Origin: a virus
Length of the DNA stretch: 64,000 nucleotides
Strand: one strand, 5' to 3'
IMG/VR virus record: IMGVR_UViG_3300033388_002430
Coordinates: 1 to 64,000 of that record
The notes beneath the pieces are model-generated. The model saw only the letters and a list, made by a program, of their open reading frames with translations. It did not search any database and was not told the origin of the DNA. The translations under genes were made by a program, and so were the position numbers. Below, piece after piece: positions 23,902-34,779 of this stretch (within the stretch, counting starts at the first letter, position 1; each line of letters starts with the position of its first letter).

Positions 23902-24923
23902 AACCATTCTGGATGTTCCATCATCCAGCTCACCACCTTCTCAATCGTTCTTTTCAAATTAAATGGTGCTGTCCATCCAAGATGTGCAATCTTTGTTCCA
24001 TCAAGACCATAATGAAGATCATGACCTGGTCTAAAACTATGGAAATCTTCATATTGAAGGTTGAGATCCTTCTCTTTACCCATCACTTTTGCAATTAATA
24101 TGGCTAATTTATCTACTGGCATCCATTCTCCAGTCACGTTATACGCCTCACCAATCTTTCCATTCTCCAGTAAGAAAACAATAGCACTTGCATGGTTTTG
24201 AGCATGGAGCCAACACCGACTCGAAACATCCACAACTACATCATCTTCTATCTTACAATGAACAATAACTGGCTCATTAGCAAGAATTTTCTTTACAACC
24301 ATGGGGAAGAATTTCTCACTGTCCTGCCTCTCACCAATATTATTCATCGTTCTGCTAATTATTACTGGTAAATCATAAGTATTATGATAGGCAGTACAAA
24401 AATCCTCTCCCGCCGCCTTACTCGCAGAGTACGGATTACTTGGCTTATGCGCTTCTCCCTCTTTATGTAAATCACCATCATATGCTGGCCCATATACCTC
24501 GTCAGTCGAAACATAAATTATTTTTTCTAGATCATGCCCATTTGATAATGTTTTTGCAAGCTCTAAAATATTTACTGTTCCTAATACATTAGATTCTATA
24601 AATGGATAAGGATCTGTAATTGATCTATCTACATGAGACTCCGCACCCATATGAATTATATAATTTATTTTTCCAAATAATCTGAGTAGTCCAAATACTT
24701 TTCCAACATCAAATTTTGCTCGGAAATCATGATAATAAAATTTTACTCTACCGCTAGAATAAGCATCTGGAAATATATCAACATCCATTAATCTATTTAG
24801 ATTTCCAGCATAAGAAAGTCTGTCCAGAATAATAATATTCCAGTCGGTATTTTCCAAGATATATTCAGTCGTGTGATGCCCAATAAATCCAGCACCACCA
24901 GTTAATAAAACAGTTTTATTCAT
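23898..24923 (-). CDS. rmlB: dTDP-glucose 4,6-dehydratase-like (RmlB)
   Basis: 341 residues, full length for the family. The NAD-binding motif TGGAGFIG (about 8-15), the STDEVYGP segment (about 130) and the catalytic YSASKAAGE (about 157-165) match RmlB-type short-chain dehydrogenases, which convert dTDP-glucose to dTDP-4-keto-6-deoxyglucose. The product could feed the glycosyltransferases on the other arm, where a reductase-like gene also lies. It is the second gene of the leftward arm, near the bidirectional promoter, so it would be expressed early. Related UDP-sugar epimerases cannot be excluded. Confidence 0.8.
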   Translation of the reverse strand: MNKTVLLTGGAGFIGHHTTEYILENTDWNIIILDRLSYAGNLNRLMDVDIFPDAYSSGRVKFYYHDFRAKFDVGKVFGLLRLFGKINYIIHMGAESHVDRSITDPYPFIESNVLGTVNILELAKTLSNGHDLEKIIYVSTDEVYGPAYDGDLHKEGEAHKPSNPYSASKAAGEDFCTAYHNTYDLPVIISRTMNNIGERQDSEKFFPMVVKKILANEPVIVHCKIEDDVVVDVSSRCWLHAQNHASAIVFLLENGKIGEAYNVTGEWMPVDKLAILIAKVMGKEKDLNLQYEDFHSFRPGHDLHYGLDGTKIAHLGWTAPFNLKRTIEKVVSWMMEHPEWL

Positions 24924-25132
24924 TTTCCTCCTCTGAATACGATTCGATATGACATACGTAAAATTGATCGTTTTGAACGTCTCCAGATCTTTTTAGCGTT
25001 TGATCTTTTTGTTCCAGAATCTACAGCACTAGTTATAAATTTTTTCCTGATATAAACGAAAAATGTCAGATAGCTGATAAGTATCGCACTGACAAAAATT
25101 GTTCCAAACGTTATTAAAAGTATTTTAAACAT
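24920..25132 (-). CDS. Single-span membrane protein with basic tail (70 aa)
   Basis: First gene of the leftward arm. An N-terminal hydrophobic span (about residues 4-27) is followed by a very basic tail (KRSNAKKIWRRSKRSILR). The tail probably stays in the cytoplasm. Function unknown. Confidence 0.55.
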   Translation of the reverse strand: MFKILLITFGTIFVSAILISYLTFFVYIRKKFITSAVDSGTKRSNAKKIWRRSKRSILRMSYRIVFRGGK

Positions 25133-25197
25133 TTTAATATTTCCTTTTAATTAATATATTAATTAAGTATTTATTTAATTATTATTTAACTCTTATT

Positions 25198-25257
25198 AAC
25201 CCTTTACAGTTTTAATAACTTAGATTATAATCATAAATGTAAGAACTGTCAAGGGTT
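25198..25257. promoter_or_regulatory. Bidirectional consensus promoter in an inverted repeat
   Basis: AACCCTTTACAGTT (25198-25211) and AACTGTCAAGGGTT (25244-25257) form an inverted repeat with one mismatch. Plus strand: TTTACA 25203-25208, 17-base spacer, TATAAT 25226-25231. Minus strand: TTGACA at 25252-25247, 17-base spacer, TATAAT at 25229-25224. The two -10 boxes overlap in the palindrome GATTATAATC. Transcription should start about 21 bases apart and diverge into the two arms. Confidence 0.85.
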
Positions 25258-25285
25258 AAAGTAAGATTAGTTTTGGAGGATAAAG

Positions 25286-25672
25286 ATGCCATTAACAAGA
25301 CATAGAGAATTACAAATGGATGAAAGTGAATGTTTTCATCTCTGGCTGGAATTAGGAGCTTTGAGTAAGGTCAGTAAGAGATTATTCAATGAGGGTAAAT
25401 ATAATCAAGACACTGGAAGGCCATTTACTCCTGGTGGGATTAGAAACTCTGCGTTACGATACATAATTTATAATCCAGATGATGCTTTTGCAAAGATGAA
25501 AGAAGTTGATCCAGTATCTCCTTATTTGAAAGATGAAGAGACTTGGTATAGATATTTGATTCGTCATGCCATAGAAGTATTTCATAATCGAGCCAATGAT
25601 GCTGATATTTTTGCTTGGGCTGAACAATATAAGATTCCACAGAGATATATAGATGAAGCATTGGACATCTGA
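25286..25672 (+). CDS. Hypothetical DNA-binding-like protein (128 aa)
   Basis: First gene of the rightward arm, behind TTGGAGG. Residues about 28-60 (from ALSKVSKRLF to TPGGIRNSALR) resemble a helix-turn-helix of the recombinase or terminase-small type. With the following two genes it may take part in DNA recognition for packaging. Not firmly recognised. Confidence 0.55.
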   Translation: MPLTRHRELQMDESECFHLWLELGALSKVSKRLFNEGKYNQDTGRPFTPGGIRNSALRYIIYNPDDAFAKMKEVDPVSPYLKDEETWYRYLIRHAIEVFHNRANDADIFAWAEQYKIPQRYIDEALDI

Positions 25673-33357: not shown

Positions 33358-33386
33358 TTGACAACTAAATAGTTTAGTGATAAAAT
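33358..33386 (+). promoter_or_regulatory. Sigma70-type promoter
   Basis: TTGACA (33358-33363), 17-base spacer, TAAAAT (33381-33386). The -10 overlaps the left arm of the hairpin at 33382-33411, so initiation would fall in the hairpin loop. It would drive the HNH gene. Confidence 0.6.
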
Positions 33387-33429: not shown

Positions 33430-34439
33430 ATGAATTTAGAAGATTATGAATATAAGAAATCTGGTCGAGGATATAAAGTCAAGATTGCTTGCTTGAGTTG
33501 TGGGGAAGAGATGTGGCAACCCTGGAACGTTGTAAAAGATGGTAGGGGTAAGTATTGTAATTCTACTTGTTATAACGAGCATAGGCATCATACAGAAGAA
33601 TTGGATCAATATGAACAAAGAATATCTCCATCTCGCCACATAGAAGTAAAAATTAATTGTGAGTGGTGTGGAGCAGAGACTTGGGTAAAATGGGTCAGAC
33701 GAAAGAAGGGTCAGGGAAGATTTTGTAATCAAGAATGTTCTCAGGAATATGCTAGAAATGAGGGGAAAAAGACTTGGGGAAAGGAAAATGCTGTCTTTTG
33801 TTGGAATAAATCTAGTCAGCATTGGGGAGCTTTCTGGAAGGATGAAAATGGTATTCAACGAAGCACTACAAAAGCTCACTGGTTATGGGAGAGGGATAAA
33901 AGAGAAATCCCAGACGGGTATTGGATTACATATATAGATGAGAACCGAGAAAATTGTGTTTTGGAGAATTTGAAAGCAGTTCCAAAAGGGGAAATAATGA
34001 GTAAAGCTCTTATGGGACATAAACATTCTGAAGAAGCAAAGAAGAAAATGTCAGAATCTCATATAGGGAAAACCCTTTCTGAAGATCATAAGCATAAAAT
34101 TAGTGCATCATTAGTAAAACGATGGAAATCTGGAGAGTTTGAATCTATTCATTGTGGAGAAAATAGTCAATATTGGAGAGGTGGCATAGATCAAGAATAT
34201 CCCCCAGAATTTAATGATAAATTAAAGCAAAAAATAAAAGAAAGAGATGAATATAAATGCAGGATTTGTTCTGATGGTGATGCTGATTAGATGTTCATCA
34301 TATAGATGGAGAAAAAACTCATAATAATTTAAATAATTTGCTTGTTTTATGTATTCACTGTCATCACAAAGTCCACGGAATAAAAGATAATCCAGACCCA
34401 GTTATTTCTATGCTTCGTTCCTTGCTTTATTGGAATTAG
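33430..34439 (+). pseudogene. HNH/NUMOD homing endonuclease-like gene with a one-base frameshift
   Basis: The first frame (33430-34290, 286 residues) has two zinc-finger-like modules (C-x2-C...C-x3-C near 21-46 and 74-98), a central HNH-like part, NUMOD3-type repeats (GHKHSEEAKKKMSESHIG and following) and ends at CRIC followed by TAG. In the -1 frame the coding continues from 34288: LDVHHIDGEKTHNNLNN then LCIHCHHKVHG, the rest of a C-terminal HNH core. One missing T around 34287 would restore a single protein. Either a real frameshift mutation, recoding, or an assembly error. AAGGAG precedes the ATG. Confidence 0.7.
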
Positions 34440-34462
34440 AGTAGGTATATATACCTACTCTA
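34437..34462 (+). terminator. 26-bp perfect palindrome / hairpin behind the HNH gene
   Basis: TAGAGTAGGTATA and its exact complement form a perfect 26-bp palindrome starting in the HNH stop codon. It shares GAGTAG/CTACTC with the hairpin before the gene (33382-33411). There is only a weak T-run behind it, so termination is possible but not certain; it could also be a protein-binding or recombination site. Confidence 0.6.
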
Positions 34463-34629: not shown

Positions 34630-34726
34630 GGGGATGCAAGGTGTCGATTGACTTGATGGTGGCTTTATAAGTCCACTGCCAGAAATGGGCAAGCAATATC
34701 CGGGTTCGATTCCCGGCATCTCCACC
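34630..34726 (+). ncRNA. tRNA/tmRNA-like RNA with normal acceptor and T arms but no normal anticodon arm
   Basis: GGGGATG (34630-34636) pairs with CATCTCC (34717-34723) as a 7-bp acceptor stem with one G-U pair. CCGGG-TTCGATT-CCCGG (34700-34716) is a canonical T arm joined directly to it, followed by ACC. The 63 bases between give no standard D arm, and the best anticodon-like hairpin (GTGG/CCAC) needs a 10-base loop or a bulge. The 5' part GGGGATGCAAGGTGTCGA recalls tmRNA 5' ends, but 97 bases is far too short for tmRNA. It could be a degenerate tRNA, a tRNA mimic, or an attachment-type copy of a host RNA 3' end. Confidence 0.55.
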
Positions 34727-34779
34727 TGATGTAGTTTTATGCAAACCGTTTCTACGCTGGATGGAAAGTCCATATTATC

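What the first reader, a model, noticed from the sequence alone, without database searches (positions are those of the whole stretch)
25198..25257. Two consensus promoters share one palindromic -10 and drive the two genome arms
The inverted repeat gives TTTACA-17-TATAAT on the plus strand and TTGACA-17-TATAAT on the minus strand, with both -10 boxes inside GATTATAATC. The two starts would be about 21 bases apart and face away from each other; each -35 lies in the other's early transcribed region. Symmetric -10 promoters that fire in both directions are known in bacteria, but here the symmetry reaches the -35 boxes and sits exactly where the whole transcription of the phage splits. RNA polymerase could serve only one side at a time, giving a built-in switch or balance between early and late arms.
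Basis: partly seen in the sequence, partly recalled or inferred. Interest (0 to 1): 0.75.

Follow-up and report, generated by a model that had tools for sequence, protein, structure and literature searches.

The report
Back-to-back phage promoters sharing one -10
Where this phage's genes split into a leftward replication half and a rightward packaging half, two near-perfect bacterial promoters lie on top of each other and share one palindromic core, so RNA polymerase should be able to read only one way at a time; it is a strong example of a known promoter class, and the proposed early/late switch is unproven.

Summary
A 64-bp imperfect palindrome (25196-25259) carries TTGACA-17-TATAAT on the minus strand and TTTACA-17-TATAAT on the plus strand, both -10 boxes inside GATTATAATC. 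It is the strongest palindrome of the window, beyond all shuffles, and sits where gene direction flips (left 56 of 57 ORFs leftward, right 44 of 47 rightward).

A terminase search found about 45 related phage contigs. Where both genes are present, polA and terL always lie on opposite strands (9/9). Four relatives carry two strong sigma70-type divergent promoters at the same junction, but separate and back-to-back, with predicted starts 95-152 bp apart. So a strong divergent pair recurs at the arm junction, while the shared -10 is this phage's variant.

It fits the published class of bidirectional promoters, unusual in having two near-consensus sides, where competition between polymerases is expected. 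A switch between early and late arms is not supported: no regulator was recognised and one holoenzyme should read both sides; a fixed, inversely coupled ratio is the modest reading. Symmetry runs 10 bp past the -35 boxes, hinting at an operator. An unrelated viral contig has the same design beside a CI-type repressor gene. Promoter activity itself is inferred from sequence.

The parts
25196..25259 (.). 64-bp imperfect palindrome, centre 25227.5, holding both promoters
25223..25232 (.). GATTATAATC, shared palindromic -10 core (hexamers overlap by 4 bases)
25203..25231 (+). rightward promoter TTTACA-17-TATAAT, 11/12; predicted start about 25237-25239
   Evidence: start inferred
25224..25252 (-). 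leftward promoter TTGACA-17-TATAAT, 12/12; predicted start about 25216-25217
   Evidence: start inferred
25196..25211 (+). left arm TTAACCCTTTACAGTT (possible operator overlapping the -35)
   Evidence: operator role inferred
25244..25259 (-). right arm TTAACCCTTGACAGTT (possible operator overlapping the -35)
   Evidence: operator role inferred
24920..25132 (-). first leftward gene, 70 aa, no homologues found
25286..25672 (+). first rightward gene, 128 aa, homologues at the start of the right arm in relatives; GGAGG at 25275-25279
25147..25166 (.). AT-only perfect palindrome TTAATTAATATATTAATTAA in the leftward leader; near copies at the same junction in three relatives

Best explanation
A strong sigma70/sigmaA-type bidirectional promoter. 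One palindromic -10 core serves two -35 boxes, one on each side, so host RNA polymerase can bind in either of two opposite orientations but not both at once. One orientation starts the leftward replication arm, the other the rightward arm (128-aa gene, HNH, terS, terL, portal). Because both sides are near consensus the two orientations should compete, coupling the arms inversely and setting a ratio in which the leftward side (12/12) is expected to win over the rightward one (11/12). Shown: the elements, their significance, their place at the arm split, and strong divergent promoter pairs at the same junction in four relatives. Inferred: promoter activity, start sites, mutual exclusion, the ratio. 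An added operator in the outer arms is possible but only a guess.
For: Both promoters near perfect at 17-bp spacing, beyond chance singly and as a pair. Symmetry in functional blocks and not in spacers. Head-to-head genes with ribosome-binding sites at proper distance. Gene direction and GC skew flip here; polA and terL on opposite strands in 9 of 9 records. Strong divergent promoters at the same junction in L096, L020, L106/L107 and L117. The same shared-core design in unrelated viral contigs at divergent junctions, against one distinct coding-sequence hit for the reversed pattern. Published class with this geometry, where strengthening one -35 reduces the opposite RNA.
Against: No transcript data. 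Host unknown, so use of a sigma70-type factor is inferred. The shared -10 is not seen in the relatives examined, and several relatives show no clear promoter pair at the junction. A 21-bp start distance is within the published 7-25 range but not one of its modes (10, 18, 23).
Confidence: 0.7

Rival explanations
1. Operator-controlled bidirectional promoter: the two 16-bp arms are inverted binding sites for one phage or host regulator that covers both -35 boxes and shuts both arms together; the symmetry exists for the regulator as much as for polymerase.
For: Symmetry extends 10 of 10 bases beyond the -35 hexamers (P about 0.0006 for the outer seven alone). In L003 the same shared-core design has perfect 18-bp arms and stands beside a divergent CI-like HTH gene.
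Against: No regulator gene recognised nearby or among the proteins scanned. The arm motif does not recur in the genome or at relatives' junctions. CC before the -35 is common in this family's promoters, so part of the extra symmetry may be promoter context. The 128-aa neighbour has no fold match.
Confidence: 0.25
2. Only the leftward promoter is used; the rightward match and the palindrome serve something else (cruciform, replication origin, or chance from an AT-rich core), and the right arm is driven from elsewhere.
For: Strong single-strand folding (-13.4 kcal/mol, z -4.9); GC skew flips here; an AT-only palindrome nearby is kept at this junction in three relatives, as could fit an origin.
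Against: An 11/12 promoter on the plus strand is reached in the junction region by only 2 of 200 shuffles; the right arm needs a promoter and this is the only good one in the gap; relatives have strong promoters on both strands here without this palindrome. Each predicted transcript contains only one arm, so no RNA hairpin. Skew follows gene direction.
Confidence: 0.1
3. A true early/late switch: competition is tipped during infection (regulator, supercoiling or modified polymerase) so that transcription changes from left to right arm.
For: Exclusion at a shared core is expected; pLS20 shows a switch built on overlapping divergent promoters.
Against: The pLS20 switch needs promoters of very different strength and a regulator acting oppositely on them; neither is evident here. 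Further consensus promoters inside the right arm would bypass the switch.
Confidence: 0.12

Closest known systems
Bidirectional promoters of bacteria (Warman, Grainger and colleagues; PMC12825309, PMC10268837)
   Same: Overlapping -10 elements on opposite strands, predicted starts 21 bp apart (class 7-25), -35 boxes on both sides, often between divergent genes.
   Different: Both sides near consensus, with a perfect palindromic core and symmetry past the -35; E. coli examples tested had basal activity too low for competition. Lies at the arm split of a phage.
Overlapping divergent promoters Pc/Pr of plasmid pLS20 (PMC4207663)
   Same: Overlapping divergent promoters where polymerase can bind only one at a time.
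   Different: Pc and Pr differ several hundred fold in strength and are controlled by Rco; here strengths look alike and no regulator is known.
CI-type repressor junction with shared -10 in viral contig L003
   Same: TTGACA-17-TATAAT on both strands sharing ATTATAAT, framed by inverted arms that include the -35.
   Different: Stands beside a CI-like HTH gene; its arms are 18 bp and perfect. No such gene at the window site.
Arm-junction promoters of related phages
   Same: Two strong divergent sigma70-type promoters upstream of the terminase module.
   Different: Separate promoters with -35 boxes facing each other, starts 95-152 bp apart, no shared -10.

Membership tests
Bidirectional promoters (Warman/Grainger class) | overlapping -10 elements on opposite strands | tested here: met
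   TATAAT on both strands inside GATTATAATC, overlapping by 4 bases
Bidirectional promoters (Warman/Grainger class) | divergent start sites 7-25 bp apart | not testable with these tools
   predicted 21 bp from -10 positions; no transcript data
Bidirectional promoters (Warman/Grainger class) | steric exclusion of opposing polymerases | not testable with these tools
   inferred from full overlap of the two sites; needs in vitro transcription
sigma70/sigmaA promoters | -35 and -10 hexamers near consensus, spacer 16-18 | tested here: met
   12/12 and 11/12 at spacer 17
sigma70/sigmaA promoters | host polymerase uses this consensus | tested here: inconclusive
   host unknown; similar promoters recur at the junction in relatives; terminase relatives in genome contigs are MAGs of mixed phyla
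Overlapping-promoter genetic switch (pLS20 type) | promoters of clearly different strength | tested here: not met
   12/12 against 11/12 by sequence; strength itself not measured
Overlapping-promoter genetic switch (pLS20 type) | regulator encoded on one side | tested here: inconclusive
   no regulator family in the flanking genes or other proteins scanned; many small proteins have no known family
CI/Cro-type lysogeny switch region | HTH repressor gene beside the divergent promoters | tested here: not met
   flanking proteins give no HTH match; 128-aa model has no fold match

The most novel reading that the evidence does not exclude
A phage sets the ratio or timing of its two genome arms with a single shared -10: two near-consensus promoters compete for polymerase at one site, possibly under one symmetric operator. 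It would be a natural bidirectional promoter strong enough for competition without an activator, made from an ancestral pair of separate back-to-back promoters.
Probability: 0.2. Interest if true: 0.6.

Novelty: new variant of a known kind. Interest (0 to 1): 0.4.

Why it matters
The five E. coli bidirectional promoters tested in PMC12825309 were too weak at baseline for polymerases to compete; competition appeared only when one side was strengthened or activated. A natural pair with both sides near consensus, at the split of a phage genome, is a ready test of whether such competition is used to tie two halves of a genome together. Relatives with separate promoters at the same junction are natural controls.

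Tried and rejected
(1) DNA relatives among annotated phages: none. (2) Single-protein scans with the 128-aa gene and terL found none; alignment-based terL scans found the family. (3) The arm pair elsewhere: none in viral contigs; one inverted pair in L108's genome lies inside terL coding sequence and was judged chance. (4) The 128-aa neighbour as a DNA-binding autoregulator: confident helical model (pLDDT 89) but no match in PDB or viral structures, so neither supported nor excluded. (5) Archaeal host, suggested by distant methanogen-virus terminase matches: disfavoured by bacterial-type promoters in the family and by family-A polymerase; host stays unknown. (6) Terminator: none called at the palindrome. 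(7) Known RNA family at the junction: none. (8) Recent inverted duplication as origin of the palindrome: unlikely, spacers are at background symmetry.

Full report
What is there. The window is most of a 65,996-base IMG/VR record of a tailed phage. Left of about 25.2 kb nearly every ORF is on the minus strand (56 of 57), including DNA polymerase A, primase, helicase, RusA-like and HNH proteins. Right of it 44 of 47 are on the plus strand, including terminase, portal, exonuclease and glycosyltransferase. GC skew changes sign at the same point. Between the two head-to-head genes (24920-25132 minus, 25286-25672 plus) lies the 64-bp palindrome 25196-25259. It holds TTGACA-17-TATAAT on the minus strand and TTTACA-17-TATAAT on the plus strand; the -10 boxes overlap by four bases in GATTATAATC.

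Chance. The minus promoter is the only exact consensus promoter in the window, 0.13 expected. The palindrome is the longest inverted repeat listed and scores 24 of 32 symmetric pairs; the best of 100 order-2 shuffled windows reached 23. No shuffled window of 60 held two >=11/12 promoters sharing a core. Block by block, symmetry is complete in the -10 core, 5 of 6 in the -35 hexamers, complete in 10 further bases around them, and at background in the spacers. Constraint on functional blocks explains this better than a recent inverted duplication.

Relatives. No close DNA relative is held among annotated phages. Terminase alignments brought in a family of about 45 contigs, mostly at 37-54% terminase identity. 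In all nine records holding both genes, polA and terL lie on opposite strands, so the two-armed layout is old. In several relatives the right arm begins with a homologue of the 128-aa gene, then HNH, terS, terL. At the same junction four relatives carry two strong divergent promoters: L096 (TTGACA-16-TATAAT on both strands), L020, L106 (L107 is the same type) and L117, with a weaker pair in L111. Predicted starts are 101, 107, 95, 152 and about 140 bp apart: ordinary back-to-back promoters with -35 boxes facing each other. L103, L112, L104, L108 and L133 show no clear pair. L017, L018 and L102 have weaker matches lying close together, not clearly above chance as pairs on both strands (L102 is the nearest to it). 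So a strong divergent pair at this junction recurs, while a shared -10 with two near-consensus sides is seen only in this window.

The same design elsewhere. A scan of all viral contigs for TTGACA-N15-ATTATAAT-N15-TGTMAA gave eight loci, five distinct types by flanking sequence. L003 and the L004 and L005 types lie between divergent genes. The reversed control pattern gave two hits that are the same site, inside coding sequence. In L003 the site stands beside a divergent CI-like HTH gene and is framed by perfect 18-bp arms, a likely repressor operator laid over the promoters. L008 has an HTH_3 gene overlapping its site. The architecture therefore recurs in unrelated viruses and is sometimes tied to a repressor.

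How it most likely works. Published work defines bacterial bidirectional promoters by overlapping -10 elements with starts 7-25 bp apart, polymerase binding in one of two orientations. In five E. coli cases basal activity was too low for competition, but improving one -35 mostly cut the opposite RNA strongly. With 12/12 and 11/12 sides this site should be in the competing regime. The most likely outcome is an inversely coupled ratio favouring the leftward arm. A timed switch would need something that changes the ratio. None was recognised, the same holoenzyme should read both sides, and further near-consensus promoters lie inside the right arm at 33358 and 34906. The well-studied overlapping-promoter switch of pLS20 relies on a large strength difference and a regulator. 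An operator in the arms is possible, from the extra symmetry and the L003 precedent, but the arm motif does not recur in this genome or at relatives' junctions, and part of the extra symmetry (CC before the -35) is common promoter context in the family. The neighbouring 128-aa protein gave a confident helical model without structural match.

Verdict. Observation confirmed; promoter reading likely; serving both arms likely; exclusion expected but inferred; switch unsupported. It is a strong new variant of a known class, of moderate interest as a natural test of polymerase competition. All functional statements rest on sequence only.

Noticed in passing
window 25147-25166; L020 4692-4711; L096 4477-4496; L101 4101-4120: AT-only 20-bp perfect palindrome TTAATTAATATATTAATTAA. 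In 15 family records copies with up to 3 mismatches occur only in these four, once each, always in the divergent junction near the terminase module. Role unknown: leader hairpin, origin element or operator.
   Followed up: partly
window 34630-34727 (+): 98-nt element matching Rfam tmRNA (RF00023) at 37.6 bits, below the curated cut-off of 47 but E 2e-13 locally. It has both ends of the tRNA-like domain (GGGGATG ... GGGTTCGATTCCCGGCATCTCCACC) and lacks the middle. Not found in 12 relatives. A reduced phage tmRNA-like RNA, or a remnant.
   Followed up: partly
window 34437-34462: Perfect 26-bp palindrome TAGAGTAGGTATATATACCTACTCTA in the same long gap as the tmRNA-like element.
   Followed up: no
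L020 4716-4757: 19-bp-stem AT-rich hairpin in the rightward leader of a relative, between promoter and first gene.
   Followed up: no
L003 2041-2090: Viral contig with TTGACA-17-TATAAT on both strands, shared ATTATAAT, perfect 18-bp inverted arms, beside a divergent CI-like HTH repressor gene: a candidate compact lysogeny switch.
   Followed up: partly
window 63258 to record end 65996: Minus-strand genes resume here, as expected if the record is a circularly permuted genome whose two arms meet head-on at about 63.2 kb.
   Followed up: no
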